DNA of 64,000 nucleotides from assembly GCF_000219625.1 (NCBI RefSeq), contig NC_018200.1:310001-374000 (forward strand), written 5' to 3'. The DNA is from Zymoseptoria tritici IPO323 (Eukaryota; Ascomycota; Dothideomycetes; Mycosphaerellales; Mycosphaerellaceae). A program made the position numbers and the translations under genes. The notes under the pieces were generated by a model. That model saw nothing but the letters and a program-made list of their open reading frames with translations. It was not told the origin of the DNA and searched no databases. Shown one piece after another: positions 7,550 to 63,067 of the stretch. The number at the start of each line of letters is the position of its first letter. Within the stretch, counting starts at the first letter, position 1.

Positions 7550-8337
7550 CATGCATGCATGCATACAAGAGGACCCAAAACGTCGACGGCCTGGACGGGC
7601 AAAGGGTTCAAATTTGCTCTCCGACTGCCATCGTCACCACAACCTCCTCCTGCCGTTCCCGATCCTAGCAACGTCCCTCCTCTTCACCCTGCTCGAACGA
7701 ATCTCTACATCACGATCCTCACATCGAATAGTCACAACGTCTGCTGCTGATTTCGACCCTGGACTCGCCCACTCACCGCCCAAATATCTTCAGCGAACGA
7801 TCTGGAGGTGTGGAAGTTGAGGCGAGACCTGCACAAATTGAAGGGTGAGGAGGATGCCGTGTATGTAAAACCGCAGCATGCTGGTATCCGCGGACTGGGT
7901 TACTCGCAAGTGGACTTTGGCCTTCTGGTGTGAGGTCAAAACGGCTTCGGATCGTCTGGCGGGCAGGGAGGGAATTATTGGAGGTCTGTGGTCGTTTAGG
8001 CGGGAGACCAATTCCATGCGATTGAAACAAGTTGAGCCGGAAAGATTTTCCTGTGATGTGGTCCTCCTGCAAGAATGTCTTTCTTTCAACATGAAAATTG
8101 ATGGAGCTGCAGAGATGTCGCACCGGCTGTGGTTTGATCCCCTCGATTGTCCTTTGCTCCAGCAGTCTCTTCCATCAGCCGCTTCCAGCATGCACTTCTT
8201 GCATTCACTTCTAGCATCCACTCCTAGCATCTATCTCGGCACTTCTTTCAGTGTTTACTCCAAGCACCTACTCTCGCATCCAGGCCACCGTCCCCACATC
8301 AAACAACCACCATCACACACGACATCGACACCCAAAC

Positions 8338-29013: not shown

Positions 29014-29391
29014 TGTTAGGATTGCCTCGTGATAAGGCAGGGAAAGACTGAAGTAGGGAAGTATCGAACAATAGGTTTTAGAATGTAACGACTCGATTCG
29101 TTAAAGGAGGGAATAGAGGAGGAGAGCCTCCTTCGCTATATATACGGCTACTGCTGGGTTCTATTCCCCTATCCTTCACTTCTCTCGTTATAAGCGGGAT
29201 CGTCTGTCCCTTCGTAGCCCTTCGATCCTTATCGTTAGGCATTAAGAGGCAAGCTAGATCGGACTGCCTTAATCCGTACGCTGTTGCGCTCTTCGTAACT
29301 AGGATAGCTCGTTGTTGTGTTCTTCGAAACTAGGTTGGCCTAGCTTAGGGGAGATAAGGCTAGACTGCGCTTACGTAAGGGGATCCTTACA
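29014..29391 (-). repeat. Chromovirus 1 LTR (3' LTR)
   Basis: 378 bp, begins TGTTAGGATT and ends CTTACA. It is followed by TTGCCCCCCTCCCCCC, the complement of a polypurine tract, which marks it as the 3' LTR of a minus-strand element. Confidence 0.92.
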
Positions 29392-29410
29392 TTGCCCCCC
29401 TCCCCCCGGT

Positions 29411-29428
29411 GCAACTAACCTTAGTTGC
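29411..29428. promoter_or_regulatory. Conserved 18-bp palindrome beside the polypurine tract
   Basis: GCAACTAACCTTAGTTGC has perfect 8-bp arms around CC. The identical sequence sits at the same place in chromovirus 2 (48179-48196), although surrounding DNA differs. It could be an operator for the antisense gene or a signal for reverse transcription; the role is inferred. Confidence 0.6.
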
Positions 29429-29529
29429 GTGCGCGAATCTTTAGCAGCGTTCAGCTGCAGGTTTAATTTACTAACTGCTAACGTTGCTAGGCCAGCTGCT
29501 TGGTGTCCCGATTGGGAAATAAAAGTGGG

Positions 29530-29670
29530 TCCCTCGCGTATATACCACTCTTTCTCGCCCTCGGATTCTTCTCTTCTTACAAACACCTACTAAAAGTAAG
29601 TACTAGCAGCTGGCTCTAGAACGGTCTAGATTAGCGCTAGATTAGCTAACATTGCGACTAGACTAGCACA
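29530..29670 (+). promoter_or_regulatory. Putative promoter and 5' leader of the antisense gene
   Basis: A TATA-like GCGTATATAC near 29538 lies about 130 bp before the ATG, as in chromovirus 2 (CGCTATATT near 48266). A possible leader intron runs from GTAAGT at 29596 past GCTAAC at 29645 to a TAG near 29661. The same donor and branch site occur in chromovirus 2. Confidence 0.5.
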
Positions 29671-30561
29671 ATGTCCGGCGCACTCTACTATCTTCGCGAC
29701 AAGTACTACAAGAAAGTCCGAGCTAGCAGATAGAACGAGAATCCGTGCTCGTTATGCCTCTCTAGCGTTAAGGAGGGCTAGGACCTGTCTAAGATCTGCC
29801 AGATTGCGGCAGAGAAGCCCCTACCCGGCAACATCCTAGCTAAGTGTTCCGGATGCCTAACTAGCAAGAATACGGACTATCTTTAGGTAGGTCGGTTTAG
29901 TTAATTCTAGCGTGTTCTGTCGCTAACTATCCTACTTAGATGCCGCTCGAGCAGGAGCCCGCCTAGAAGGCTATTAAGCAGGACATCGACACTATCTACG
30001 GCCGTACTACCCAGTCTAAGGCTAAGAAGGAAGACTTGCTAGATCGTGTTCTATGTTTTACGGGCTCTATAGAGGCGTAAGTGTCCCTTTCTGGCGTGTT
30101 CTGGACTAGCAGCTAATTAGGATAGTTAAACAGGAAGTTAAATAGTAGTTTCCGTAGCGAGGACGGTCTCTCCTAGCACCCTAGCACTACTACCTAGGAG
30201 GATACTAGACAGAAGGTGCCTAAGAGGGACTGCTCGGCTAGTGCGATCTTAGCGAAGGCTATATGTACTATCCCTAGCTTAATCTGGCCCTTACTAACAT
30301 TCTTTGTAGCAGTCTAGTAGCACCCCTAGCAAGAAGCGCCGCTTAATAGACGTGCGCGGCCGTAAGTCGGACCGTAAGCGTACTAAGGAGGCCGAGGACC
30401 GCCTAATCGCGGTTAGCACTACCTTAGAGGCGTTTAACCGCCTTGTTATAAGCGACTAGGCTCTAAAGAAGGGACAGTTGCGCAAGATAGTCTTTCCGAC
30501 GACCGCTAAGGACCGTAGTAAGGTAGAGGACCCGAACTAGGGCGACTCCGACTCTAATTAA
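29671..30561 (+). pseudogene. Antisense multi-exon gene of chromovirus 1, Cys-cluster protein
   Basis: The gene lies between the 3' LTR and the end of pol, on the strand opposite gag-pol. Exons: 29671-29886 (216 nt), 29940-30076 (137 nt), about 30126-30260, 30310-30561. Introns have branch sites such as GCTAAC and TTACTAAC; the third donor reads ATATGT, a RIP-type G-to-A. The N-terminus has a Cys cluster (NPCSLC, later KICQIA and KCSGCL) like a zinc-binding domain. Later conserved blocks are RQKVPKRD and SKKRRLIDV, and the end is acidic (GDSDSN). In-frame TAGs match Gln positions. The acceptor of intron 2 is uncertain. Its counterpart at 48396-49297 shares exon sizes and motifs. Function is unknown; DNA binding is an inference from the Cys cluster and basic patch. 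Confidence 0.75.
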
Positions 30562-33500
30562 GCTATTCTAGACCAGAATAGCGGGCGTAGGTCTTCCGGG
30601 ACTAGGGGTATAACAGATAACGTCGACATAGCATATTAAGACTATAGCGGGGCCCAGATAGTTGTTAAATAGCGCAGGGTTAGTTAACTTAGACTAGATT
30701 AGACTAGAATAAAGCCGATTCCGCCCTTCGAATTTTTAAATTCAAATAATTTTGTCTAAGTCCCTTAGAAATCCTCGGGATTTTTCTTACATCTTCCTAC
30801 GCCTTTTTAGCTCCTTCTGGCCTATCTTGCGGCGGAATGCTCTTATTGCCGCCGGGCTTATGTTATATCTAGGCTCCTAGGAGTTCTCGTGCTCCCCGAA
30901 GCCCTTCTACTTAATTAGGTAACTAAAGTTGTGTAGGTCGTCCTCTTTTTTATCTAAGATGTCTTCTACCTCCTATTCGTCCCCGTCCCCTACGTCGTAC
31001 CGCTTCATTTTGTCCTATTTGCGGCTAGAGTAGTCCAGGATGGACTTCTTAAGGAGCGAGACGTAGAAGGTAGGATAGATGCTTAGCGAGCTAGGGAGGT
31101 CGAGTATATATGCTACGCGGTTAACTATTGCCTTAACCTTATATAGTCCGATGTACTTGTAGTCGAGCTTAGGTGACGGCCGCATAGACTTAATATTCTT
31201 CGTGTTTAGGTAGACTTCGTTACCTACGCTAAAGGAGACGTCCTTCCTATACTTGTTCGCCTACTTAGCTATCTATTTCTTCGTCTTAGCTAGTCTTTCG
31301 CGCATCTTCTTCTAGTTAGCGATTATCTGCTCCGCGAGTTAGACAGCCTTTAGCGCCTCGCCATCTTTCTAGCGCATTCTAGGCTAGTAGGACCTTCGTA
31401 GGTCCCTCGTTATATATACTTAGAACGGCGTTAGCCTGGTTGCCGTATATACACTATTATTATAGGCGAATTCCGCCGTCGACAGCAGAGAGGCCTAGTT
31501 GTCCTGCTTATAGTTGCAGTACGTCCGCAAATACTACTCTAGTGTCTAGTTCTACCTTTCCGTCTAACTATCCGTCTACGGATAGAACGCCGTACTTAGC
31601 TTCCGGCGTACCCCGAGGCAGTAGTAGAAGGTGCTCCAGAATTTAGAGGTAAGGATTAGCCCGCGGTCGGACGTAATCGTAGCCGGCTAGCTATAGAGGC
31701 GGACAACCTCTCTTATTATAAGTTTAGCAAGGTTAGCTAACGTAATCGTTTTCCGGCATAGCACGTAATAGACTATCTTAGTGCAGCGGTCTACTACTAC
31801 TAGTATGTAGTCGTAAGACTAGCTTAGGAACTTGCTCGGCGGGAGGTTAGTAATAAAATCCAGCGTAATGTCGGCCTAGGGAGTTAGCGAGGGGGGTTCG
31901 GGGTGTAGCAGGCCGTACAGTTTGTACCTTCGTAGCTTCGCTCTTTCGCACGCCTAGCAGGTCCTTACGAACTCCTTAACATACCTCCGCATCCTAGGCT
32001 AGTAGAAACTACGCTAAAGCAGCTCTAGGGTCCTTATAAAGCCGAAATGTCCGGAGAGGGGGTCGTCGTAGCATTCCTAGAGTAGCTAGAGCCTTATAGC
32101 GCCTTCTAGCACGTATGCCTTGCTATTTATGTACGCAACGCCCTCTTCTAGGGACTACCTCTCCGCCTAGAAGGTAGGCTTAGCGACAGCCTTCTCCTAG
32201 ACTATCCTCTTATAGGTAGGGTCCTTACTAAGGGCTTTCTTAAGCCGCTCTAGAAGGTTCGGGGTCCTTACCGCTGCCCCGACGTACCGGACTAGGCTAT
32301 CCTGCCCTGTCGGCGGTGCAAATACCTTTCGGAAGAGGCGGACGCTAGCGTCTACTTCCTCCTCGGTGGCCTATCGGCCCGAATGCGACTCCTTAGTAAG
32401 GTCTGGTCTCCTACTAAGTGCGTCGGCGGCGCTATTCGCCTTACCCGGCCTATACGTAGTCCTAAAATCGATCTGCGACAGCTATTTAGCCTATCTAACT
32501 TGCCTCCTCGAGAGGGTCTTCATCGTTATAAGGGTCTAAAGGTTCGCATAGTCGGTTAGCAACTCTACTTAGTAGCGGGCGCCCTCGAAGTAGTGCCTAA
32601 AGTGTTTAAAGGAGTCTACTATAGCGAGGAGCTCGCTATCTTCTGTTCCGTAGTTCCTTTCTGCCGCAATTATCTTCCTTAAGAAGTAGGCGACCGGGAA
32701 CTACTACAGTTTGCCCCCCTCGTTATAAGGCTGGGATAGGATGCCCGATATTGCTTCCCCCGATGCGTCGGTCTCTACCCGACAGGGGAGCTCTAGGTTA
32801 TAGTAGCGTAGAACGGGCTCTTCTGCGAACTTGCGGCGTAGCTTATAGAAGGACTAGATCGCCCTATTGTCTAATTCGAGATAAGCACGCTCTCTTCGGC
32901 GCTAGTTCGCCGCCTTCTTGCCTTTAGTATAGCGGTTTAGGGCGGCCGCTAGCCGCGAGAAGCCCTTAATAAAGCGTCGGTAGTAGTTAGCAAAACTAAT
33001 AAAGACCCTTATATCGTAGATAGACGTAGGGACTAGCTACTCCTAGACCGATTTAATGCGTTCTAGGTCGATCCGCAGCTTATCCTAGGTAACTACGTAG
33101 CCTAGGTATTCGACCTGGCTTTTGTGGAACTCGCATTTAGCTAGGTTGGCGTACAGCTTGTGCCGTCGTAGCCGTTCTAAGACCTGCCGGACGTAATCCT
33201 CGTGCTCTTTAAGCGTTCTAGAGTAAATTAGGATGTCGTTAAGGTATATAACGTAGAAGACATTAACTAGTCCTACCAGGACGCTGTTAATGAAGTTCTA
33301 GAACACTACCGGGGCATTACAAAGCCCGAATAGCATTACTGTGTATTCAAAATGGCCGTACCTAGTCCGGAATGCCGTCTTCTACTCGTCGCCTTCCCTA
33401 ATACGCACCCGATAGTACGCATAGCGTAGGTCGACCTTAGTAAAGTACCTAGCACCGGCTAGCTAGTCGAGGGACTCGCTAATAAGAGGTAGACCCCCCC

Positions 33501-34027
33501 TGTTCTTAACTGTTACCGCGTTCAGACCGCGGTAGTCGACATATAGGCGGAGGGTACTATCCTTCTTCCGTACGAAGAGGACTAGAGCGCTAGCCGACGA
33601 CGTCGACCGCCTAATAAACCCGTTCTTTAGGTGCTCGGGTAGCTAGGTCCGTATAGCCTCTATCTCTGCCTCGGACAGGGCGTACATCGGACTAAAGGGG
33701 ACCTTTCCTCCTTCTACTAGCTCGATCTTTAGATTATGTGGACCGTAGGGAGCTAACTCGCCTACGAGTTCCTCCGAGAAGACATCCGCGAAGTTAGAGT
33801 AGGCGCTCGGAACGCCCCCCTAACCCGGACTGGCTTCTTCCGACGCGTCCTAGATCGTTATAACATAAAGTGCCGCGTTTACTTCGCTAAGGCACTCCCT
33901 ATAGAACCTCTCTAGCCTAACGACGGCTATCGCCTGTCGTTTTCGGGGCTTCGTTCTCTAGTTAACCCTCTTTAGGGTAAAATCTACGTTTGGATTGTAT
34001 TTCTCGAGCTAAGGCATCCCCAAGACG

Positions 34028-34032
34028 ACCTT
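34028..34032 (+). repeat. Possible target duplication ACCTT, left
   Basis: ACCTT occurs here and at 34586-34590, flanking a segment absent from the homologous position of chromovirus 2 (near 52775). Confidence 0.5.
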
Positions 34033-34261
34033 ATTGCACGAGGTACGAGTGCCATTTTATGAAAGACTGCAGCCGTCTTCTTCCACCGACAGGGATCTTT
34101 CAAAGGTCTGTTTTGATTAGTTTTCCTAACAAAAAGAGGGGTCTATCAAAGCTCGCTTTTAATTAGTCCCTCGTATTCTCGTATTCTCGTACCGTCGCAA
34201 TGTCGCATTGTTACCTCGGGCAAGGTAAGCTCCCTTGCCGTGCTTCTACGGTAGAAGAAAA

Positions 34262-34346
34262 AAAAGAGGCGTCGCATCGTCGTATTGTCGCATCGTCGCA
34301 TTGTCGTCGCATTGTCGTCGCATTGTCGCATCGTCGCATTGTCGCC
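34262..34346 (+). repeat. GTCGCATT/GTCGCATC microsatellite
   Basis: About ten imperfect 8-11-bp units within the tRNA-related insertion. Confidence 0.85.
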
Positions 34347-34445
34347 GGGTTCAATTCCTTCTCTTTTTGCCCCGTCGTACCGTCGCAATCTATAAAGGTT
34401 GGGACAGTACGATTCGACGGGGCAAAAAGAGAAGGAATTAAACCC
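34347..34445. repeat. 31-bp inverted repeat with tRNA B-box in both arms
   Basis: Arms 34347-34377 and 34415-34445 are complementary except for one C/T position. Each begins with a GGGTT(C/T)AATTCC B-box-like sequence, and the loop is 37 nt. The transcript could fold into a long hairpin. Confidence 0.85.
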
Positions 34446-36149
34446 GCGACCCTAAAAGCGAGATTCAACCGCTCTTTCTAATCGGCTAAAACGCCGGCCG
34501 ATTAATTAGTCTAAAAGACGACTTAATATATTAGGCTCGTAGCTCTTCCTCGTGCACATACTTGGACGTAGAGAGTCCGCTAGAAACCTTGTAGCTATGG
34601 ATGCGCCCTACTCTGAAGGTGTCGACGCATCCGTGCATTCGTCCTGAGTCGTCCCGGGCCTTATATGAGCTCCGCGTCTCGCTAAGGACCTAAAGGCTTT
34701 GCCCGTTTAGCGTCTTATACGCGACCCTAGCGGGCGGCTCCTAGATAACCTAGTCTATGTCCTTTGCTAATAAGGAGTTATAGAAGTTATCCTACGCGCC
34801 GCTGTCGATTAGTCCCGCGACCGTTCTGGTCCTCCCTGGACTATTTAAGGTTAGCGTAACTTCGATAAGGCGCCTACGCTCATAGCGGCGCCGCCCCGGC
34901 TCCGCTATCCTACGCTACTCCTTAGTATAGAGAACCTAGCCTACTAAGATAGCAGCGTCTACTTAGGGGGCGCCTCTTTTTCCGAGTCCTTCTAGAGGGA
35001 AGGGTTAGGGCAATCGCGCTTAATATGCCCGACCTAGCGGCAACCGTAGTAAGTAGCCTTAGATAGGCCCCTCTAGTCCGATCCGTCCTCCGACTTGGAC
35101 TTCTTAGAGTCCTAGTCGTCGACACTGTTGCTTCTACGTCTCTTTCGGTTGCCCTTGCCTCTTCTACGGCCCGGGTTGTTCCTTAACTCCTGCTTCTAAA
35201 CCTCGATAATCCTATAGGTTTTGTTAACCCTCTCTTAGGCCTTAATAAGCGTAGTAGCCGGAGCCGGGTAGTTAGAGAGGCGGGAGCGGTAGTTCTATAG
35301 CAAGGAGGCCTTAAAGTTAAGGATCTTACGCCCCTCGTTCTCTTCTTCCAACTCCTTCTAAAGGATCTTTAGCTCTTCGAAGAGCTAGTCGGGGGTGCGG
35401 TCTCCGAGGGAGGCCTTCCGCAATTGTTCGTAGGCCTTCTCGCGGCGTTCCGCCTCTGTCCCTATAGAGTTAAGCATAACTCCCTTTATTATAGTCTAGG
35501 TTGGCGTGGTCTAGCCGTCGAGCTAATCTACGTAGCGCTCCTAGTAGTCTTACTAGAGCTTGCCTATATAGTCGGCGGCGTAGTCGACCTTTCGGTCCTC
35601 CCGGTTAGAGAATCTATAGTGTCTGCGGAAGTTGCGTTCTACCGCGCGGAGCTAGTCTTCGTAATTAGTACGGGTCTTCCCTTCGAATACGGGTGGTTCC
35701 TTAGACTTAGGGAGGCTGTCCTTGTTCTTATCGAAATAGTCCGTTTCTACGAAGAGTTTAGCAAGTTTCTCCCTCCTTAGGGTAATTAGGCTATATAAGG
35801 CTAGTTCGCTCCGGAGCTCCTTAATCTTTTGCTAGAGTTCGAGGAATTCGTATTCCGCCCGGGCTTCCTAGTTCCGTTTCTCACGGGTTAGTGCGTCCCC
35901 TTGAACTAGGTCAGCCTAAGTAGTCGAGTTAGTACTTTCCTAGGTCGTTCCGGCATCGTCCACGGTTTCCGCGATAGAGGTAGCGCTTAGCTAGCGGGCG
36001 GCGGCGTCCGCGTCGGACTTAGCGGCTAGTATAGCACCCTACTAGCGAGCGGAGGTGTCGGAAGGAGATTCCTCGTGTCTACGAGTGGCCTTAGGTGCTA
36101 TGTCGATCGGGGGTTCGATACCGTAGTACGTAAGTTTAAACGAATCGCG

Positions 36150-36527
36150 TATTAGGATTGCCTCGTAATAAGGCAGGGAAAGACTAAAGTAGGGAAGTAT
36201 CGAACAATAGGTTTTAGAATGTAACGACTCGATTCGTTAAAGGAGGGAATAGAGGAGGAGAGCCTCCTTCGCTATATACACGGCTACTACTAGGTTCCAT
36301 TCCCCTATCCTTTACTTCTCTCGTTATAAGCGGGATCGTCTGTCCCTTCGTAGCCCTTCGATCCTTATCGTTAGGCATTAAGAGGCAAGCTAGATCGGAC
36401 TGCCTTAATCCGTACGCTGTTGCGCTCTTCGTAACTAGGATGGCTCGTTGTTGTGTTCTTCGAAACTAGGTTGGCCCAGCTTAGGGGAGATAAGGCCAGA
36501 CTGCGCTTACGTGAGGGGATCCTCACA
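36150..36527 (-). repeat. Chromovirus 1 LTR (5' LTR)
   Basis: 378 bp, starts TATTAGG (TG changed to TA) and ends CTCACA. Same length as the left LTR, about 13 transitions and no indels. Confidence 0.92.
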
Positions 36528-47830: not shown

Positions 47831-48159
47831 TGTTAGAAGCACCTCGAGAGGGAATGTAGGCTTGCACCAAAAACAAATGGTTGTAGAATGTAACGAGTCG
47901 ATTCGATAAGGAAGGGAATGGACAAGAGCGTCCCTCGAGGCTATGTACCCGCCCTTCGTGTTGCCAAATACGTCCCTCCGCCTAGACCAGGCACCGGTCG
48001 CAGTCTAACGTCCGCTCGGGGGCTATCGTACGCCCGTAAGGTTCGTTCCTCTACAGGATGTCCTAGTCTAGGCTAGATAAGATAGCACCGGTAATCTGTA
48101 GTGCTAGGATAGTCTAGGTTAGGATAGGTAGGGGGCGTCATCGTAAGGGTGTCCTCACA
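47831..48159 (-). repeat. Chromovirus 2 LTR (3' LTR)
   Basis: 329 bp from TGTTAGAAGC to CCTCACA, followed by TTGCCCCCCTCCCC, the polypurine-tract complement. Confidence 0.92.
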
Positions 48160-48178
48160 TTGCCCCCCTCCCCTCTCT

Positions 48179-48196
48179 GCAACTAACCTTAGTTGC
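48179..48196. promoter_or_regulatory. Conserved 18-bp palindrome, copy in chromovirus 2
   Basis: GCAACTAACCTTAGTTGC, identical to 29411-29428, again just inside the polypurine tract and upstream of the antisense gene. Confidence 0.6.
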
Positions 48197-48249
48197 GGTG
48201 GAAAATTCATAAGCTGTTAGCTGCCAGATGTCCCAATCTGGAAGGATTT

Positions 48250-48395
48250 GCGGGTCCGTAGCGTCGCTATATTAATTTAATTCTTCTTCTAAACTTTCTC
48301 TCTTCTTTACTAACTACCAAAAAGTAAGTAATCTAGGGTAGTGCTAGTATAGTCCAGTTTGGGTCTAGCAAGGCTAACATTAGCGCAGACACACT
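48250..48395 (+). promoter_or_regulatory. Putative promoter and leader of antisense gene 2
   Basis: TATA-like CTATATT near 48266, about 130 bp before the ATG. A leader intron probably runs from GTAAGT (48324) past GCTAAC to TAG at 48383 or CAG at 48388. Confidence 0.5.
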
Positions 48396-49297
48396 ATGTC
48401 TTCCGCCGCCGCGGCCCTCGTGCGCAACGATTACGCCAAAAAGGTCCGCAACGGGGCTTTCAACCACAATCCGTGCTTTAATTGCATTAAAGACGTTAAG
48501 CTAAACAAAGACTTAACTAAACTGTGCTAGTTAGCGCTAGAGAAGCCTATTAAGGGCATTACTACCAAATGCGCCGGCTGTCTGGACGACAGAAATGCCG
48601 ATTGCTTCTAGGTAGGATATTTCTGGACTGCTCTGGAGTCTTCTAGATCTAGGCTAACCCTAAATAGCTCCCTCCGGCCCGTAAGGACAAGTGGGACACT
48701 ATTAATGCCCAGATTTAAGCAGAGTACGCTAATCTAGTAGTGAACGCGGACAACAGGAAGAAGTTAAGGAGCAAGGTGCTCCTGTTTGCTAGTTCGATTA
48801 AGTTGTATGTGCCGTTCTGGCTTATTTTAGACTAGTATGCTAATAGTTGGCGCCTTAGGGAGCTTAGAAACAGCGTTCGCGGCCCGGAGGGTCTCACTTT
48901 GCACTAGGGTACCCGCGAGTAGGACACGACGGGTCAAAAGGTTAAGAAGCGGGACAGGTCGGCCGCTGCTTATATAGAGAAGGCCGTAAGTGTACCGTTC
49001 TGGCGCATTTTAGGCTATGCTAACGCTAGGATGTAGGAGCAGGCTGCTGCCGGGACCCCGAGGGCCAAGAGAAGCCGCCTAATTAATCTAAAGGGCGCTA
49101 TTACGGTCTAGTCGTTAACAGACAAGCTTAACATGTACAAGACTGCCTTATATCGCAATAGCAAGGCCCTGGAGAGGTTTAATTCGTACGCTAGGGGTAC
49201 AGGAAAGACTAACAGGGAGGCGTTAAAGGCTTTAGTAAGCACTACGGCCGCTTGGGAGCGTAGAGAGGACGCTTCGGACGAGGATAGCGATAATTAA
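48396..49297 (+). pseudogene. Antisense multi-exon gene of chromovirus 2, Cys-cluster protein (~250 aa)
   Basis: Exons 48396-48611 (216 nt), 48668-48804 (137 nt), 48847-48985 (139 nt) and 49037-49297 sum to 251 codons with stop, in phase. Introns have GTAGGA, GTATGT and GTAAGT donors and GCTAAC/GCTAAT branch sites; the second is only 42 nt, so one end may shift. The N-terminus reads DYAKKVRNG and NPCFNCIKDVKLNKDLTKLC, then KCAGCLDDRNADC: a six-Cys cluster suggesting zinc binding. Then come GQKVKKRDRSAAA, AKRSRLINLKG and an acidic end DASDEDSDN. Only about seven in-frame stops, mostly TAG for CAG, so it decayed recently. The same gene occurs in chromovirus 1. Confidence 0.8.
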
Positions 49298-49589
49298 GCC
49301 GGTTTAGTCTAGTTAGCTCTAGCAGTATGTAGGGTATAACAGATAACGCCATTACGCAGAGTGATAGGGCCCTTTTAAGTTATAATAGCGCAGAATAGCT
49401 TAACGTGGACTAGAATGGTCCAGAATAGAAAGCCTTGACGCCCAAATGAAATCCCTAGAATTATTAAAAATGTTAAAGTCTAATGTCATAAAGCAAAAAG
49501 GATTGAAAAATTAACTAAGGGGGTTAGCGTTTTTTCTGGAATTTACCGCGCGCAGTTGGTCCTTTCTGGCCTATTCTGCGCCGGTAGGC

Positions 49590-52500
49590 CCGCATTGCTG
49601 CCGGGCTAATGTTAACTGCTGCTTCCCAGGAGTTCTCGGACTAGTCGTAGTCTTTCCACTTAATAAGGTACTCCCGATTGTTCAGTTCGTCTACATGTTC
49701 GGCCAGAATAGCCTCGACTTCGTATTTATTGTCCTCTCCTACGTCGTATCGCATCATCCTATCCTATTTACGACCAAACTAGTCCGGGATAGATAGTTCT
49801 AGCAGAGAAATATAGAAGGTTAGGTAGATCTCTAGTAAGTCTAGTAGATCGAGCGTATATACGACGCGGTTAATAACCGCTTTTACCTTATAAGGTCCAA
49901 TGTATTTGTAATCGAGCTTCGCCGAAGGTCTTAGTAACCTAATATTGCGTGTGTTAAGGTAGACTTCGTCTCCGACGTTAAAGGAGATGTCCTTCCTATA
50001 CTCGTTCGCCTACTTAGCCATTTGCTTCTTTGTTTTGGCCAGTCTAACCCGCAGTTTCTTCTAGTTGGAGATAACGCGGTCCGCAAGTTGTGCGGCGAAC
50101 AGGGCTTCTCGTCCATTCTGGCGTAGTCTAGGCTAGTGGCACTGCCGAGGGTCCCGTGTCGTATACGCCTAGAATAGCGTGACCCCTATTGCGGAGTATA
50201 CGCTATTATTGTACGAGAATTCCGCAGTAGAGAGTAGGGAGGCCTAGTTGTCCTGTTCATAGTTGCAGTATGTGCGAAGATACTGCTCTAGCGTCTGGTT
50301 TTGGCGCTCTGTTTGCCTGTCTGTTTAAGGGTGGAACGCTGTGCTCAGTTTTCGGCGTATGCTAAGGCAGAAATAGAACATGCTCTAGAACTTTAAGGTT
50401 AGGATGGGCCCTCGATCCGACGTAATCGTAGCTAGTGCGCTATAGAGTCGTACGACTTCCCTTATAAACACCTCTGCGAGCTCTGCTACGGTAATCGTCT
50501 TCTTGTATAGCGCATAATAGACTATTTTAGTGCATCTGTCCACGATTACTAGGATTAAGTCGTAAGCCTGGCCTAGAAGCATGCTAGGTAGTAGGTCCGT
50601 TATGAAGTCTAGCGTTATATCCTCCTATAGTGTGAGCGATAGTAGCTCTGCGTGCAGCAATCCGTAAGGTTTGTGCCGCCGTAGCTTTGCCCTGCTGCAC
50701 GCTTAATACGTTCGTGTGTAGTCCTTAACGTATTTCCTCATTTTGGGCTAGTAGAAACTCCTTTGTAGAAGTTCGAGCGTTCGAGAGAAGCCGAAGTGCC
50801 CTGCTATAGGGTCGTCGTAGCATTCCTAAAGTAGTTGGAGTCTTATGCTTCCTTTAGGTACGTAGGCCTTGCTGTCTATGTACGCGACTCTATCCTCGTT
50901 AGTCTATCGATCTGCCTAGAAAGCAGGTTCCGCTTAGTCCTTCTCCTCGTTAATCCTGTTAAAGGTCGGATCTTTTAAGAGGGCGCGTTTTAGGCGCGTT
51001 TTCAGGTCTGGGGCGTCCTTTACTGCCCCTACGTGCCTTACTGGTCTATTATAGTCCAAATGCGGTTAGAATGCCGTCTGGAGGAGCCGCAAGCTTGTAG
51101 ACGACTCTTTGTCTATAGCCTACCGTCCAGAGTAGTCCTTATCCGTAAGGTCGGGCCTTCTGCTTAGTGTATCCGCCGCCCTATTAGCCTTGCTAGGTCT
51201 GTAAATAGTCCTAAAGTCGATCTGCGATAACTACTCGGCCTATCTAACCTGCCGCCTGGACAAGGTCTTGGTCGTTATAAGAGTTTGTAGGTTTGCATAA
51301 TCCGTTAGTAGTTCGACCTAGTGTCGAGCCCCCTCCAGGTATTGTCTGAAGTACTTAAAGGAGTCTACGACTGCTAACAGCTTAGCGTCTTCCGTAACGT
51401 AGTTCCGTTCTGCCGCGATTATCTTTCGTAAGAAGTATAATATAGGGAACTACTGCGTCTTGCCGTGGTCTTCGTATAGTTGGCTTAGGATGCCCGAGAT
51501 TGCCTCGCCTAAGGCGTCGGTTTCTACCCTACAGGGCAGTTCTAGGTTAAAATAGCGTAGGATAGGAGCTTCCGAGAACCTTTTTCGTAATTCGTTAAAG
51601 GAAAGTATAGCTTGCTTGTCGAGCTCTAAGTATGCTCGTTCCTTCTTGCGTTAGTTTACTGCCTTTTTCCCCTCCGTGTAGCGGTTAAGTGCCGCAGCGA
51701 GGCGTAAGAAACCCTTAATAAAGCGCCTATAGTAGTTCGCGAAGCCGATAAAGACCCTAATGTTATATATTAACTGGGGAAGTAGCCACTCCTGGACCGA
51801 TCTGACCCGTTCTAGGTCGATCTCTAGCCTATTACGTGTAATAACGTACCCGAGGTAGTTAACGCGGTCCTTATAGAAATCGCACTTAGACAGGTTGGCG
51901 TACAACTTGTGTTTCCGGAGGCGCTCTAGCACCTCCCGGACGTGGCCCTCGTGCTCCTTTACCGTTTTAGAGTATATAAGGATGTCGTCGAGGTAAACAA
52001 CGTAGAACACGTCGATTAGCCCTACTAACACGCTGTTAATAAAGTTTTGGAACACCGCGGGGGCATTGCAGAGCCCGAAGGGCATTACGGTGTATTCGAA
52101 ATAGCCGTATCTGGTCCGGAAGGCTGTCTTCTACTCGTCGCCTTCCCGGATACGGACACGGTAGTACGCGTAGCGGAGGTCTATCTTCGTAAAGTACCTG
52201 GCGCTAGCCAGCTAGTCTATTAACTCGGAAATTAAGGGAAGACCCCCCCTGTTCTTTACTGTAACCGCATTCAGGCCGCGGTAGTCGACACAGAGGCGGA
52301 GTGTGTTGTCCTTTTTCCTCGCGAAGAGGATTAGCGCGCCCGCCGAGGATGTCGAGCGGCGAATAAAGCTACTCTTTAGATGTTTAGGGAGCTGCTTGCG
52401 TATCGCATCTATCTCTGCCTCCGACAGAGCGTACATAGGGCTAAATAGGACCCTTGCTCCCTTAACTAGGTCGATCCTGAGATCGTGCAGTCTATGCGGT

Positions 52501-54260
52501 GCCAACTTGCTAGCCAACTCCTCCGAAAAGACGTCGGAGAAGTTAGAGTACGCCGTTAGGACGCTATTCTAGTCTAGTTCAAGTCTATCCTCGACCTCTT
52601 AGATCGACATAACGTAAAGAGCTGCCTCGACTTTATCGAGATACTCCCGGTAGAACCTGTCCGGGGATACTACCGCCATCGCTTAACGCTTTTAAGGTTT
52701 CTGCCTCTAAAAGACCTTCTTTAGAGCGAAGTTAATACCCGGGTTGTACTTCTCGAGCTAGGGCATGCCGAGCACGACTTCGAAACCGTAGATACGTCCT
52801 ACCTTAAACGTGTCTACGCACCCCTGCGTCTTGCCAGAGGTGTCTACAGCCTTGTAGGAGTTTCTCGTTTCTCTAAAGACCTGTAGGCTCTAGCTATTTA
52901 GAGTTAGGTACTTTGTCTAGGTAGATAGCTCGGAAACTGTCTACCCTATTTCCTTTGCTAGCATAGAATCGCAGAAGTTGTCCTGGGCGCCGCTATCAAT
53001 CAGGCCCCGGACCTTTCTGGACTCCCCTAGGCCGTTTAGCGTTAACTCGACGCTAATTAGGCGCCCTTGCTAGGCGCGGCGCTTTCCTAGCTTAGCCGAG
53101 CGCCGCTAATCCTTATTGTAGAGGACTTGGCCTACCTAAGCAATAGCGTCTACTTAGGGGGCGTCTCTTTCCCCGAATCCTTCTATAGGTGCTAGTTAGT
53201 GTAGTCGCGGCGGATATGCCCGACCTGTTAGCATCCGTAGCACGTAGCCTTAGAGGGGGCCTTCGGGTTCTGTTCGCCATCGCTAGTCCTTGCCTTCTTA
53301 CCGTCCGGAGCAGCAGAGCCGTCGCTAGGGCGCTTCTTCGCCTACTTAGCGGACCTTTTAGTAGCCTGCCTCTTACGAGCCTCCTGTTTGGAGCCCTCGT
53401 TGGCATAGTAGGCCTTTTTAGCCCTTTCCTCGGCGTCTACTAGGTTTAGTAGGGCAGTAGGGTAGTTCGAGAGGCGGTTACGAAGGGTCTATAGAAGGGC
53501 GCTATAGAACCTAAGGATCTTCTTGCTATCGTCCCTTTTATCGAGCTCCTTCTAGAGTGTCTTTAGCTCCTCGAGGAGTTCTTCCGGCGTACGGTTACCT
53601 AGGGTAACCTTTTTTAGCTTCTCGTAGGCCTTCTCGCGCCGTTCGGTCTCTGTGCCTATCGAGTTAAGTATAACCTCCTTTATTATAGACTAGGTTGGCT
53701 TAGACTGGTCGTTAAGGCCGTCGACGTAGCGTTCCTAGTAGTCTTGCTAGAGCTTTCCTATATAGTCGGTAGTAAAGTCGACCTTGCGGTCTTCGCGTTC
53801 GGCGAATCCTTCGTGTCGTCTAAAGGCTCTTTCGAGGGCTCGGACCTAGTCGTCGTAGCTCGTACGCGACTTGCCCTCGAAGACTAGTAGCTCCTTTAAC
53901 TTAGGGAGGTTATCCCTTGTTTTGGTGTGCTAGTTAGGTTCGGAGAAGAGGTAGCGGAGGGTAGCCGTCCTTAGGTTCCCTTCTAGCGTAGGATAGTCTA
54001 GTTCGGCACAGAGTTCCTTAATCTTCTGCTAAAGGGTTAAGAACTCGAAGGTAGCGCAGGCGACTTCGTTGTCGTACTCCCGGGTAGCCCTTTCTTCCGC
54101 GGTCTCTCCCGAGCTAGGCTAGTTAAGAAGGTTAACGTCCTGTAGCTAACTAGCAGGCGTAGCCGATAGCTCCGTAGAGGAAGCGCTCGCCTACTGTCGG
54201 GCGGAGGTGTTAGGAAGGGAATCGTCCTAACGACGGGTAACCTTTAGAGCTATATCGGTG
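49590..54260 (-). pseudogene. gag-pol of chromovirus 2
   Basis: The RT is well kept: MPFGLCNAPAVFQNFINSVL, then VVYLDDILIYSKTVKEHEGH in one 145-codon open stretch (52085-51651). The RT start includes [20 protein letters not shown] (about 52250). The protease has LIDSGAQDNF. The integrase has LILVIVDRCTKIVYY and SDRGPIL. The chromodomain has EVEAILAEHVDELNN and EYLIKWK. The gag knuckle is CYGC-QVGHIRRD. RIP stops interrupt it at many points, so it is not functional, but catalytic residues of the RT persist. Confidence 0.9.
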
Positions 54261-54301
54261 GTTTTCGGTACAGTTGTACGGTTGTTTTTGATTAAATCGA
54301 A

Positions 54302-54630
54302 TGTTAGAAGCACCTCGAGAGGGAATGTAGGCTTACACCGAAAACAAATAGTTGTAGAATGTAACGAGTCGATTCGATAAGGAAGGGAATAGACAAGAGC
54401 GTCCCTCGAGGCTATGTACCCGCCCTTCGTGTTGCCAAATGCGTCCCTCCGCCTAGACCAGGCACCGGTCGCAGTCTAACGTCCGCTTAGGGGCTATCGT
54501 ACGCCCGTAAGGTTCGTCCCTCTACAGGATGTCCTAGTCTAGGCTAGATAAGATAGCACCGGTAATCTGTAGTGCCAGGATGGTCCAGGTTGGGACAGGT
54601 GGGGGGCGTCATCGTAAGGGTGTCCTCACA
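54302..54630 (-). repeat. Chromovirus 2 LTR (5' LTR)
   Basis: 329 bp, same ends as 47831-48159, transitions only. Confidence 0.92.
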
Positions 54631-54635: not shown

Positions 54636-55681
54636 AGCTAAAACCTCCTTTTGTCTGTCCTTGTTTGTGATGTTGTCGATGTGCGGTGCGAGCTCGTAGA
54701 CCTTCTTTTTTAAGTGCTACTATACGTGTTTAATCGGGTTTATATCCGGGCTGTAAGGTGGCTAGCTAATGTGTAGCTAGACCGTGTTGTCGCTTATCTA
54801 CTACGTTGTAAGATGCGCAGTATGCACCGGTGCGTTGTCCTGTTAAAAGCACTAACCCTCGTAATATAGAAGGAGTCCTTCTTCGAGAGTCTTGTAGTAA
54901 GAACGTGCTAAATACCCTCCGCGTGGACTGTCGGCATTACGCTCTATTATCACAAGGTGTGTGTCCTCGATTTCTATACTAATTATGCCCTAAACTATTA
55001 CGGAGCCTTGCTTGCCCTTTGGATACGTTGTAATGCGTTGTTTAGTCCACTTCTCGTATAGGTATCCGAATGCCTAAGCCGTCTCTTTGCCGGTGCCTTT
55101 CTCGACTGAACACTCGTCTAAAAACAGCCACCGTGACTAGTCTGTGTTGCAGTGTGCGTACGCCTAAGCGAGCCGGATTCGAGCATGTTCATCTATAAGC
55201 TCCGGACGCTTCTTACAACGCTAGTTTATTAAGCCGTAGTTACTTAGAATCGCTCGAAGAATCTACGCGCTAAGATTCGAGCTATAGCCGTCGCGTAGCT
55301 ACGCATACATAAATTTCGGGTCTTTTCTCGCGATTCGAACGACGAGTCTCGCGTCGCGTGCGGTATAGGTTCGAGGGCGGCCGGTGCGTAGTTTGTTATC
55401 GAGGGATTGTCGTTGTGCGATACGCGTTAAACAGTCCCTTATAGTCGTGTATAGAAGCTGTTCGAGCGTCGCGATCTCGGCGTTAGTCTAGCTAGCCGTA
55501 TGTCGTCCCCACAGCCTTCCCTTTTGGTTAGGTGTTAGTTCAGTATTAATCACACGATTGTGTGCAATTGGGGCCAGAGGGGTGCGTAGTGTGGCCATTA
55601 AGAGCGTGTGGAAGAATGGTGTTGAAAAACGCGATCACGAAGTTCGCGCGCCAAGGCGCAGATTTAGTGCCTAGTACTGTA

Positions 55682-55770
55682 CTACGCCGCGATTAGAGCT
55701 AGAGCTAGCGAACGCCGGCTCTACTACTACGCCGTAAGTAGAGCTAGAGCTAGCGAACGAGAGCTTAAGC
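55682..55770 (+). repeat. ~45-bp imperfect tandem repeat at the mariner target
   Basis: CTACGCCG, TAGAGCTAGAGCTAGCGAAC and GCCGGCTCTACTA blocks repeat. The mariner inserted at the TA inside GCTCTACTA. Confidence 0.7.
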
Positions 55771-56799
55771 GACCGCCGCCGCCGACGCCGGAGCCTATAG
55801 TAACCTTAGCGGTAGTTAGCTACCGGTAAAGAAGGTCTCGAAGAAGGGCTTAACTAAGGAGTAAGAGCTTATATTAATAAGGATAGCTGTAAGGGTTAAG
55901 GAGCATTATAGCGACGGCTTCTAGCTAGTGCTTACGGCTTAGTTTCTGTAGTAGACTAGCGTTAACTACGGTAGTCTATAGAAGGTGTTAAAGAAGCTTA
56001 AAGAGCGGTGGACTATAAAGTTTAAGGCCGCTAGCACTAGCACTAGTAAGGAAGACGAGACAGGCATGTCGCTAGTAATAAGGGAGTAGCTTAAGTTTAA
56101 GAGCGCTTAAGTAGTAGCTAAGGTAGCTCGTACGGCGGCTGTAAAGGTTACTAATAATAAGTAGGCTACTTTATAACTAGCTAGAGCGGACATAATACAA
56201 CGATAAGGGAAGAAGAGTTACCGGTAGCGTATAGAAGCTAGTAGTAAGTCTAAGAGCGACAGTAACGCTAATGCTATCGGTAAGCCTAAGGACTTTAGTA
56301 AGGACGAGCGCTTTAATAACGACGGCGACACCGGCTCCATAATGCTACTACTACGCCCTTAATAACGTACGCCTACCGCTACTATACCGAGTAGTCGACG
56401 ATTATCCTTAACGCCGTCTAAGGCTTTAATACCGGTCCCCTCGTCGTCTATAACTATGTCGGCGCGAGCTAAGAAGAAGCGTAAGGCGCTAGCGGACGAG
56501 ACGACGTTTTAAGGCGAGATAACGTCGTTTATAAGGTCTATAAACGACAACCGCGCTATTAACGCCGCTAGCTCCTTAGCGTTCGAGATGTTAGCTAAGG
56601 GTATCGTATAGCTATAAGAGTCGACCAAAGAAACGAATAAGAAGCTTACTAAACTAGTTAGCGTAGTGCGCGACTCGGTAACACGGCCGTAAGCTAGATA
56701 CGATCCGTTAGATAACTTCGATCTAGGCTAGTTTCTCGGCTAAAAATGTTACATATCCTCTATAGCTAGCGTTCGGCGAGTTGTCGACCGATCTAGCTA

Positions 56800-58580
56800 A
56801 TCTTACGATATGTTGTACTCTAAGCATTACGCTCGAGCCTCCTTACCTTAGATATATGTCGTGTTGTGTATTCGTAGAGTTATTATTAGTCGTAGTAGTA
56901 GTCAGTTAATTTTTAAAGTAAGGGGAGTTAGATAAATTCGAGGGTCTAGCGTCGAGTTAAGCTTCGACATCTAGATAATTAACAACGCGACGGTCTCTGT
57001 ACCGATTTACCTCGTTTTTTTTTTACTAATTACCGACGGATCTAAAAAATGTAAAGGAAGTAGAAATGTAGTAAATATATAGTGTTGTTTATGCGTAGTG
57101 TTAGATGGCGGTGAAATTTAAGGAATTTCGGGTATAGCCGCGCTTACTAAGAATACTAACTTCGAATGAACTTTGAAGTCTTCGAGGCTCTTAGTCTTCT
57201 CGTACTATTGCCGGACGTCGTAGAAGATGTAGCTACTACTCGGTTTTAGTAAGGATTACTACCAAAACGCTTATTCGGAGTTATCGCTCGTTACGTCGTC
57301 GTTAGGGTGCGGCTAACAGAGGTACTCGTAAAGATTCGGTAGCTAAATTATATATTTCTTACTCGTTTAATTGTGCCCCTTTATGTACGTATAGTAGTTA
57401 GAGAGCAATACGGCTACGATAAAGAACTAACTAACGGCTTACTTACTAAGTATAAGCTACTTATAGAAGGTGTTGTAGGCCTACTTACGAGTAGTACTAC
57501 TAAAGGCGTATTCGACGCTAATCCGTAGACTAGAGAGATTCTTATTAAAGCGCTTCTACTCTAGCGTAAGGAAGTAGCGACTAAGTAAATAAGCGTATAG
57601 TGCTATAACTCCAAAGCTGCTAAAGTATGTAGGATCTCCGTATAGATAGAGCGGTGTACGGTTGTAGAAGAGCCTTCGAAGTCGTCGATTAACGCCGGAG
57701 TGTTAATATATAAACTAGTCGTTCTTACTACCGTTAAAGGGGCTAATAAGGCTAGATACGAGACTATCCGGTATAATAATAGCCTAGTATTTGTAGCCGT
57801 ATGCCTTCTTGTAGCCTAAATACTACTTTCTTTAGTTTCGGCCGGGCCTTACGAAGCCTTAAAAGTAACTATCTACGAACCCCTATATTAGGCCCTCGGC
57901 GCTAGCGTCTCTACTTATAGTCGCGAAGTAAGGAAGCCTCCGGTAGCTACGAAGGCGTAGATGCTACTCGACAATAGTGCTATAACGCCTCGCGAGGTAG
58001 TCGACGGTATCTATAAAAACAATAGAGCACTAAGTTTTACTACGGCCGAACTTCTCCGTAGTAGCCTCCTAGCGGCTTAGATATAATAGGCGCCAAAGGA
58101 CGAGAGCGAGGGCTATCTTAGGCAGTACTTAACAGCGATAACGGAATGTTATTACATTAATGTCGAAGGCTATAGCGAGTTTAGTAATTTTATCCTTTAT
58201 GAACCTAAGGTGTTAATTGTTAGTTAGCGGCGGCGACGGTAACCTTTAACTTCTAACGCTCAAATTCCTTCTTCCTTCTACCCTTAACACTAACACTACT
58301 ACTACTACTACTTACCGCGTATGCTTCCGATACTAGCTATCCGACCTTCTATAGAGCGACTAGTCGATGAACTCGTAACACGAATCTTCCTTCTTCTACT
58401 TCGGCGGCTTATATAGCCCGTAGTAGGCTACTAATACGATTACTAACACCGCGAGCTCGAGCTTAATCGAATTATCTATTAGAAGAGTATAGGAAACGGC
58501 TTAAGGACATACAATAAGAAGGTAAGTAAGAGCGTAAACACGGTAAACACGGCTAAGAGATATTGCATAGACTATACGCG
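56800..58580 (-). pseudogene. Harbinger-like DDE transposase, RIPed
   Basis: Core motifs on the minus strand: GFVDSYF (first Asp, about 57890) after HLRLRSYRRLP, GYKKAYGYKY and AIIIPDSLVSSLISPFNGSK, then TPLYLYGDPTYFSSFGV (second Asp, about 57660), NKNLSSLRISVEYAF (Glu, about 57530) and FFIVAVLLSNYYTYIKG (about 57385). This is the DDE_Tnp_4 pattern of PIF/Harbinger elements. Trp/Gln codons have become stops throughout, so it is inactive. Confidence 0.75.
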
Positions 58581-58679
58581 TTTTTACGCTTTACCGGATT
58601 TATTTACTTACGAGACATACGTGACCGTCCTAATTAGGCGGTTGCGTGGCCTAGCAGTGTATATAGCAAGGCCCTACTA

Positions 58680-58845
58680 AACTGCTCTAATCCATCCGGC
58701 TTATAAGAATTGATTAATTAATCAATTCTTTAAAAAACACGCGGATTAATTAATTGTCTTAGCGCCATCCCGTCAAATCTCGAAAATGGATTGATGGATT
58801 AATTAATCCGATGGATTGACCAATCCGCCGATTGATTGTTCACTA
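58680..58845. repeat. Subterminal GGATTGATT repeats, right
   Basis: Several inverted and direct copies of ATTGATTAATTAATC and GGATTGA, mirroring 46795-46980. Confidence 0.7.
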
Positions 58846-58850
58846 CACTG

Positions 58851-58858
58851 GTCGAGAC
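58851..58858 (+). repeat. 8-bp target duplication GTCGAGAC, right
   Basis: Identical to 46776-46783. Confidence 0.9.
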
Positions 58859-59131
58859 GGCGGTGGAGCGTTGGAAGCTCTAGCTGTTACCGATGTCGCA
58901 GCGGAAGGACGGGCAAAGCAGGGATTGCGAGATTAGGCATCTAATCAGGCAGGAAGTTCCGGAAGCACTTTCAGTTTCACGCTGCAGCTTCAAAGATTCG
59001 CAATTTTCGCTAACACTTAAGTGCTTTTTTCTAGTAAAGCCGCATAGTCGGCTTCCCTCCTACTAATGATCCGCCGCCACTATAGCACGGCCGCCTTGAT
59101 CTCCTAAATGCGAGTTGATTCTAAGGAACGA
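58859..59131. other. Short non-RIPed stretch between transposons
   Basis: Continuation of the single-copy island interrupted at 46783. No gene seen. RIP-like composition begins again at about 59030. Confidence 0.5.
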
Positions 59132-59238
59132 TGTTGTTGCATTGTTGAACTAAGGAAGAAGAAGAAAGAAGGAACTAACTATACAGAAGGTTGGTGAATG
59201 TTTGCCTAAGGCAGAACTTTCCGCTATATTCCAAATCA
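59132..59238 (-). repeat. Possible Copia 3' LTR, 107 bp
   Basis: TG...CA boundaries next to a polypurine-like CCCCCTTCCTTC. No second copy is available for checking. Confidence 0.35.
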
Positions 59239-59449
59239 CCCCCTTCCTTCGCACTTCCTTCTTCCGGCGCATTTCTAAGCGCAGTCGTAGCAGTTCTGAG
59301 ACCTGCGGAAACGACTCGTACGAAAGCTGGAAACTCCAAAACCGTCGTAAAACTATTAGCTAATAAGAGGCTAGAGAACTCCTTTAGTTTCTGCACGTAA
59401 CTAAAAGTCTCTTTATTCCTTCTTCGTGACCTCCTTAGTAAGGTCGGTA

Positions 59450-63000: not shown

Positions 63001-63040
63001 CTTGTCGTTAGCGTTGTTGTTCGGCTTCGATAGTAGCTTT

Positions 63041-63067
63041 GTTTGTTTGTTTGTTTGTTTGTTTGTT
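63041..63067 (+). repeat. (TTTG)n microsatellite, tail of LINE B
   Basis: About six to seven perfect TTTG units; the complement is the 3' tail of the LINE. Confidence 0.95.

What the first reader, a model, noticed from the sequence alone, without database searches (positions are those of the whole stretch)
29671..30561. Conserved antisense multi-exon gene inside two different chromoviruses
Seen: both Ty3/gypsy elements carry, between pol and the 3' LTR and on the opposite strand, a gene with matching exon sizes (216 and 137 nt for exons 1 and 2), matching intron positions with CTAAC-like branch sites, and conserved peptides (NPC..C, KC.GCL, QKV.KRD, K(R/K).RLI, acidic end). The LTRs of the two elements do not match, so conservation of this gene across families implies past selection. 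Known: extra antisense ORFs occur in some plant Ty3/gypsy lineages. I know of no described fungal counterpart, but I could not search. Inference: a Cys-cluster nuclear protein that regulates the element or counters host silencing.
Basis: partly seen in the sequence, partly recalled or inferred. Interest (0 to 1): 0.9.

Follow-up and report, generated by a model that had tools for sequence, protein, structure and literature searches.

The report
Spliced antisense gene in fungal retrotransposons
Related fungal jumping genes carry an extra four-exon gene on their opposite strand; it is real and conserved, belongs to a type of gene already reported in other retrotransposons, and its job is still unknown.

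Summary
On the + strand of two minus-strand chromoviruses (A 29014-36527, B 47831-54630) lies a gene with coding exons of 216, 137, 127 and 252/261 nt and introns at the same places and phases. With stops as X, the products match at E 3e-38, 36% identity.

Added here: a third, more distant chromovirus family in the same genome carries the same four-exon gene. The gene has a promoter-like leader with a fourth predicted intron. Unnamed proteins of other Zymoseptoria tritici isolates use the same coding junctions. It accompanies pol in nearly all copies examined. Transversions, which RIP does not make, show real but loose constraint (ratio 0.59; pol 0.19).

The claim of no fungal counterpart is wrong: Botrytis Boty elements carry the antisense gene brtn (seen through citing papers). 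Homology to it could not be tested.

Most likely it encodes a small, basic, cysteine-rich nuclear accessory protein of the element. Localisation, zinc binding and role are inferred. Every copy checked here is broken.

The parts
29014..29391 (-). 3' LTR of element A
   Evidence: 365 of 378 bases identical to the other LTR; TSD TCTTC on both sides of the element
36150..36527 (-). 5' LTR of element A
30787..34029 (-). 3' part of pol of element A (RT, RNase H, integrase, SH3, chromodomain), full of stops
   Evidence: Pfam on three pieces with X at stops
29411..29428 (.). inverted repeat beside the polypurine tract, element A
29539..29543 (+). TATA-like box of the antisense gene, A
   Evidence: conserved order in A and B; TATAT in 10 of 18 A copies, CATAT in 8
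29596..29661 (+). predicted 5' leader intron, A (66 nt)
   Evidence: GT and AG in 18 of 18 copies
29671..29886 (+). exon 1 of the antisense gene, A (cysteine cluster)
29940..30076 (+). exon 2, A
30134..30260 (+). exon 3, A
30310..30561 (+). exon 4 with stop, A (basic patch, acidic end)
30606..30622 (+). block after the gene shared exactly with B (GGGTATAACAGATAACG)
47831..48159 (-). 3' LTR of element B
   Evidence: 315 of 329 bases identical to the other LTR; TSD ACGTT
54302..54630 (-). 5' LTR of element B
49550..52778 (-). 3' part of pol of element B
   Evidence: RT match 52778-51579; SH3 and Chromo in the piece 50402-49550
48179..48196 (.). inverted repeat beside the polypurine tract, element B (same 18 bases as in A)
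48268..48272 (+). TATA-like box, B
   Evidence: TATAT in 22 of 26 copies, CATAT in 4
48324..48388 (+). predicted 5' leader intron, B (65 nt)
   Evidence: GT and AG in 26 of 26 copies
48396..48611 (+). exon 1 of the antisense gene, B
   Evidence: junction to exon 2 as in P0001
48668..48804 (+). exon 2, B
48859..48985 (+). exon 3, B
49037..49297 (+). exon 4 with stop, B
   Evidence: junction from exon 3 as in P0002
49332..49348 (+). block after the gene shared exactly with A

Best explanation
It is an old accessory gene of a chromovirus (chromodomain Ty3/gypsy) lineage in this fungus, very probably Zymoseptoria tritici. It lies tail-to-tail with pol, between pol and the 3' LTR. Shown by sequence: four coding exons with three introns, homologous products in three families, a promoter-like leader inside the element with a fourth predicted intron. 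Inferred: it is transcribed from integrated copies through its own promoter; the antisense orientation lets its introns survive passage through the sense-strand RNA; the spliced mRNA makes a basic protein of about 236-246 residues with a CX2C-X13-C-X(14-21)-CX2C-X(4-7)-C cluster, basic NLS-like patches and (A and B) an acidic end, which enters the nucleus and acts in trans as an accessory regulator of its own element. A possible target is the inverted repeat beside the polypurine tract; that step is speculative. That it is a real protein-coding gene I hold at about 0.95; the figure below is for the whole statement.
For: Products of A and B match (E 3e-38); the third family matches by profile (E 7.7e-12), and unmasked annotated proteins P0001 and P0004 match (E 4e-12). 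Introns have the same phases 0, 2, 0 in all three families. Annotated proteins in other isolates cross all three junctions in families B and C. Acceptors are AG in 19 of 19 A, 26 of 26 B and 5 of 5 C copies. Leader order is conserved between A and B (score 89, best of 200 shuffles 40). Transversion ratio 0.59, interval 0.39-0.87. The gene accompanies pol in 21 of 22 A and 39 of 40 B fragments. Products are basic, without a strongly hydrophobic stretch.
Against: No transcript data were available; every copy read here has stops. The gene evolves fast (0.59 against 0.19 for pol). No domain is recognised. P0004 has no K[KR]X[KR] patch, P0002 and P0003 do not align by BLASTP, and the leader of B against C is no better than shuffles. 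TATAT is CATAT in 8 of 18 A and 4 of 26 B copies. The one structure model is unusable.
Confidence: 0.45

Rival explanations
1. The antisense protein helps the nuclear steps of transposition itself (import of the preintegration complex, or targeting together with the chromodomain integrase), rather than expression.
For: Same anatomy: basic, cysteine-rich, linked to pol in nearly all copies examined. The review PMC7264820 raises this for antisense ORFs (passages).
Against: Nothing here points to it specifically; chromoviruses without such a gene are recalled to transpose.
Confidence: 0.2
2. The antisense transcript, not the protein, is the working part: it pairs with sense RNA or collides with sense transcription and so limits the element.
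For: Tail-to-tail arrangement; antisense RNA roles are discussed in PMC7264820, and a listing shows a paper on transposon-derived antisense lncRNAs in a powdery mildew (PMC10648671, listing only). Leader and downstream blocks are conserved outside the frame.
Against: Reading frame, exon phases and protein motifs are conserved over three families and codon position 3 varies most; an RNA role does not need that.
Confidence: 0.15
3. The protein counters host silencing or RIP-type defence.
For: Fast evolution under loose constraint would fit an arms race; the host mutates these elements heavily.
Against: No direct evidence; relaxed constraint explains fast change equally well; the copies were mutated all the same.
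Confidence: 0.12
4. Host gene captured by the lineage, kept as passenger cargo.
For: Spliceosomal introns are what a captured host gene would bring.
Against: Searches found no host homologue: as far as I compared by eye, the own-genome matches listed for A fall on A and B copies, and three protein searches found only Z. tritici fragments. A passenger would not stay constrained in three families.
Confidence: 0.05
5. Chance or artefact: mutated non-coding DNA of two sister elements that looks like a gene.
For: A and B are sisters whose non-coding flanks also align in part; ungapped exon 1 and 2 DNA identity is no better than the best other offset; all copies read have stops.
Against: Third, distant family, gene models in other isolates, frame control, exon-length differences in threes, codon-position bias.
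Confidence: 0.03

Closest known systems
brtn, antisense gene of Boty-like Ty3/gypsy elements of Botrytis cinerea (Zhao et al. 2011, Virology 417:248; paper not held, seen only through PMC8365987, PMC7264820, PMC4227169 and PMC5987419 passages)
   Same: Additional antisense gene between pol and 3' LTR of a fungal Ty3/gypsy element whose polyprotein has a chromodomain.
   Different: Sequence, exon structure and length of BRTN were not available, so homology is untested; protein searches with this gene returned no Botrytis protein.
gene23 of maize Grande, and antisense ORFs of rice RIRE2, Silene Retand, Phaseolus PvRetro13
   Same: Antisense, between pol and 3' LTR; Grande's has its own promoter and a nuclear product (PMC7264820 and PMC11963269 passages).
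   Different: Plant elements; Retand is a non-chromovirus lineage (abstract start); the passages mention no conserved multi-intron structure. Sequences were not compared.
Antisense gene of HTLV (HBZ)
   Same: Antisense gene at the 3' side, nuclear product (PMC11963269 passage; details recalled).
   Different: Its antisense promoter lies inside the 3' LTR (PMC7264820); here the promoter-like sequence lies in the internal region. No sequence comparison made.
Fungal Zn(II)2Cys6 binuclear cluster proteins
   Same: Order of six cysteines CX2C..C..CX2C..C.
   Different: Spacing 13 and 14-21 instead of the canonical 6 and 5-12 (pattern recalled; not matched); no Pfam match.

Membership tests
Antisense additional ORF between pol and 3' LTR (aORF-3R) | Lies between pol and 3' LTR on the strand opposite gag-pol | tested here: met
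   family C
Antisense additional ORF between pol and 3' LTR (aORF-3R) | Present in most copies of the family | tested here: met
   21 of 22 A and 39 of 40 B pol 3' fragments examined; 5 of 6 C stretches
Boty brtn | Sequence homology to BRTN | not testable with these tools
   BRTN sequence not held; no Botrytis protein among hits
Boty brtn | Carried by a chromodomain Ty3/gypsy element of a fungus | tested here: met
   Chromo in A and B
Grande gene23 type | Own promoter upstream of the antisense gene | tested here: inconclusive
   TATA-like box, pyrimidine tract and leader intron conserved in A and B, order kept in C but alignment weak; no transcript data
Grande gene23 type | Nuclear protein | not testable with these tools
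   only NLS-like patches in P0001, P0002, P0003, none in P0004
Fungal Zn(II)2Cys6 binuclear cluster | CX2CX6CX5-12CX2CX6-8C (recalled) | tested here: not met
   P0001 and P0004 do not match; no Pfam match
Chromovirus | Ty3/gypsy pol with C-terminal chromodomain | tested here: met
   RVT_1, RNase H, Integrase_H2C2 in A; SH3_Tf2-1 and Chromo in A and B; family C not scanned by Pfam
Introner-like elements (recalled as known from this group of fungi) | Near-identical introns spread through many host genes | tested here: inconclusive
   Introns of this gene resemble one another (14 of 28 pairs reached by at most 6 of 300 shuffles), but the shared strict pattern was found only in A and B copies, 59 of 59

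The most novel reading that the evidence does not exclude
A lineage-wide self-contained regulatory module in fungal chromoviruses: an intron-bearing antisense gene kept through retrotransposition by its orientation, with its own promoter, encoding a new six-cysteine nuclear protein that recognises a family-specific inverted repeat beside the polypurine tract and so tunes sense transcription or plus-strand priming of its own element.
Probability: 0.15. Interest if true: 0.75.

Novelty: new variant of a known kind. Interest (0 to 1): 0.5.

Why it matters
Antisense genes between pol and the 3' LTR have been reported in plants and Botrytis without a known role. Here three families in one well-studied fungus share such a gene with three coding introns and a promoter-like leader, so its expression can be tested with existing stranded RNA-seq and its product with a small protein in a laboratory yeast. 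It also suggests that some short orphan proteins in this fungus' annotations are pieces of a retrotransposon gene.

Tried and rejected
Domain searches: Pfam, NCBIfam and PDB sequence searches gave nothing credible. A MIT match at E 0.085 and PDB matches at E 0.3 and weaker, nearly all glucose-6-phosphate dehydrogenase, are taken as chance.

Relatives outside the species: three searches of the 5.8-billion-protein set returned only Z. tritici proteins (the last scored only the 7998 candidates sharing most words). IMG/VR gave 51 pattern matches, none confirmed. These tools miss distant relatives, so absence elsewhere is not shown.

Structure: one model of pLDDT 48, too poor for a fold search; the second job was still unfinished at the last look. 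No fold search was run.

Host origin of the introns: the shared pattern was found only in gene copies, but one strict pattern is not a full test. Zn2Cys6: order of cysteines fits, spacing does not.

A codon-model dN/dS on restored sequences and a DNA consensus were not attempted, because the genome tool forbids consensus or repaired frames on proviral stretches; transversions were used instead.

Full report
What the window is. It lies in a genome of 39,686,251 bases in 21 contigs, at C19:310001-374000. Hits to unnamed proteins of Zymoseptoria tritici isolates and the size and chromosome number point to Z. tritici; PMC5765654 gives 39.7 Mb and 21 chromosomes for both IPO323 and 1A5. That it is IPO323, chromosome 19, is my recollection. 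Two complete LTR elements lie on the minus strand: A (29014-36527, LTRs of 378 bp) and B (47831-54630, LTRs of 329 bp), each with a 5-bp target-site duplication. Pieces of pol match RVT_1, RNase H and Integrase_H2C2 (A) and Tf2-1-like SH3 and Chromo (A and B) in Pfam, so both are chromoviruses. The two LTRs of an element differ only by transitions (13 of 13 in A, 14 of 14 in B), as expected if the insertions were young when RIP-type mutation hit them.

The gene. On the + strand between pol and the 3' LTR each element has four coding exons, 216/137/127/252 nt in A and 216/137/127/261 nt in B. Introns are 53/57/49 and 56/54/51 nt, in phases 0, 2, 0. With X at stops the products match along their length (E 3e-38, 36% identity). 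In the window copies the gene frame has the fewest stops of six frames: A 8 against 12-29, B 6 against 8-25. TGA is rare in every frame, so its absence says little. A weaker control: without gaps, DNA identity of exons 1 and 2 between A and B (0.347, 0.401) does not beat the best other offset (0.370, 0.401); exon 3 does (0.567 against 0.417). For exons 1 and 2 the case therefore rests on the protein alignment and the splice sites.

Copies. Among the 68 loci then held I found 19 distinct full-length A copies and 26 B copies. Acceptors are AG in all of them for all three introns. Donors are GT in 19, 18 and 12 of 19 (A) and 25, 21 and 26 of 26 (B); the rest are AT. In-frame stops are TAG 203 and TAA 2 (A), TAG 161 and TAA 35 (B). 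Variable columns are pure transitions in 190 of 195 (A) and 201 of 211 (B), so nearly all divergence within a family is of the RIP type. Each copy has at least two in-frame stops. The gene goes with the elements: 21 of 22 A and 39 of 40 B pol 3' fragments have a gene copy within 2.5 kb. Both pol searches listed only their best 40 of 87 and 74 candidates; the B fragment without one (C6) has a B gene copy slightly further off, at about 2.7 kb.

Selection. RIP makes transitions only, so I compared transversions between A and B. In the gene: 122/480 at codon positions 1+2 and 84/240 at position 3 (Fisher p 0.009). In the 3.2-kb pol block: 0.043 and 0.077 at two positions and 0.247 at the third; in a second block (34755-35837) 0.106, 0.128 and 0.218. 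Corrected ratios are 0.59 for the gene (resampled 95% interval 0.39-0.87) and 0.19 for the first pol block. The gene is constrained but changes much faster than pol. The ratio is rough, because third positions approach saturation.

A third family. Searching the genome with the A reverse transcriptase piece found a further family at about 47-51% identity (which scored 104 of 321 candidates). I fetched six stretches. tblastn with the A and B products found the antisense gene directly in two of the six (B exon 1: E 3.9e-5 in L070, 0.001 in L071). L070 has LTRs at 850-1065 and 7562-7777 and, antisense to pol, four exons of 222/134/139/216 nt with introns of 53/49/51 nt in the same phases. By DNA similarity five of the six stretches hold the gene; for the sixth, L069, a later search places a copy just beyond the fetched end (C7:149913-150773). 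The full product matches the A/B profile at E 7.7e-12, probability 97.5. All 15 donors and 15 acceptors in the five copies are GT and AG; three of the five have lost the ATG. Exon-length differences (A to B 0, 0, 0, 9; B to C 6, -3, 12, -45) are all multiples of three.

Independent gene models. P0001 and P0002 (ST99CH_1A5) and P0003 and P0004 (ST99CH_1E4) are unnamed proteins that between them cross all three coding junctions of the B and C families. P0001 and P0004 match each other without any masking (E 4e-12); P0002 and P0003 gave no BLASTP alignment. The paper that I take to be behind these annotations (PMC5765654, passages) says BRAKER was run with intron hints from RNA-seq during infection; whether these introns had reads is not known. 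Each of these proteins is partial; I saw no single full-length model.

Leader. Upstream of the ATG, A and B share in order a TATAT box (-132/-128), a pyrimidine tract, GTAAGT (-75/-72) and GCTAAC (-26/-23); the alignment score is 89 against a best of 40 in 200 shuffles. The predicted leader introns (66 and 65 nt) keep GT and AG in 18 of 18 A and 26 of 26 B copies; the box reads CATAT in 8 of 18 A and 4 of 26 B copies. In C the same order appears (TTTAAA -256, pyrimidine tract -228, GTAAGT -194, GCTAAC -115). A against C scores 47.5 (shuffle 95% level 39, maximum 54.5); B against C does not exceed chance (27.5 against 35).

Inverted repeats. Beside the polypurine tract A and B share GCAACTAACCTTAGTTGC. 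With at most one mismatch it was found 43 times in the genome, 42 of them within 400 nt of a listed A or B gene copy; the exception, C4:964559, appears to belong to an A element split by a B insertion. C has a different inverted repeat at the same place (arms of 6-7 nt, shuffle p 0.006-0.043 over five copies; A 0.003, B 0.0005). It may be a protein site, a hairpin used in plus-strand priming, or neither.

What it does. The annotated products are basic (pI 8.9-10.6) without a strongly hydrophobic stretch, with a six-cysteine cluster CX2C-X13-C-X14/21-CX2C-X7/4-C in P0001 and P0004, K[KR]X[KR] patches in P0001, P0002 and P0003 but not P0004, and acidic ends in A and B. The cluster has the order but not the spacing of Zn(II)2Cys6 (pattern recalled), so it is not filed there. 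I think a nuclear accessory regulator of the element most likely. A role in nuclear entry or integration, antisense RNA control, or action against silencing stays open. That antisense orientation preserves introns through the RNA stage follows from general knowledge of retrotransposition; I did not test it.

Against the literature. [quoted passage not shown] PMC8365987 and PMC4227169 (passages) cite Zhao et al. 2011 for brtn; PMC5987419 (passage) reports a Monilinia sequence similar to BRTN. The 2011 paper is not held. The word antisense does not occur in the main text of PMC4522978, PMC4502367, PMC10652580 or PMC3248453, and the passages found in PMC10711317 do not describe such a gene. Ten paper searches showed none for Z. 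tritici in titles or abstract starts; supplements were not read. So the kind is known; the spliced form shared by three families appears undescribed in this library, within those limits.

Verdict. A real, conserved, spliced antisense accessory gene; a new variant of a known kind; function unproven.

Noticed in passing
29411-29428 and 48179-48196; L070 minus strand just inside the 3' LTR (about 7545-7529): Inverted repeat beside the polypurine tract: the same 18 bases in A and B, a different one at the same place in family C.
   Followed up: partly
30077-30133, 48805-48858, 48986-49036 (also 29887-29939): Introns of the gene resemble one another across positions and families (shared core like TTCTGGCG; 14 of 28 pairs reached by at most 6 of 300 shuffles); the strict pattern was found only in A and B gene copies, 59 of 59.
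   Followed up: partly
30606-30622 and 49332-49348: A 17-base block GGGTATAACAGATAACG after the antisense stop codon is identical in A and B; perhaps part of a 3' end signal.
   Followed up: no
G000:C4, about 949-965 kb: An A element seems split by a B element inserted on the 5' side of its antisense gene.
   Followed up: no
window 55000-64000: Low-GC stretch with RIP-like indices (TpA/ApT 2.1), without a tblastn match to the A reverse transcriptase piece or the antisense products; not identified.
   Followed up: no
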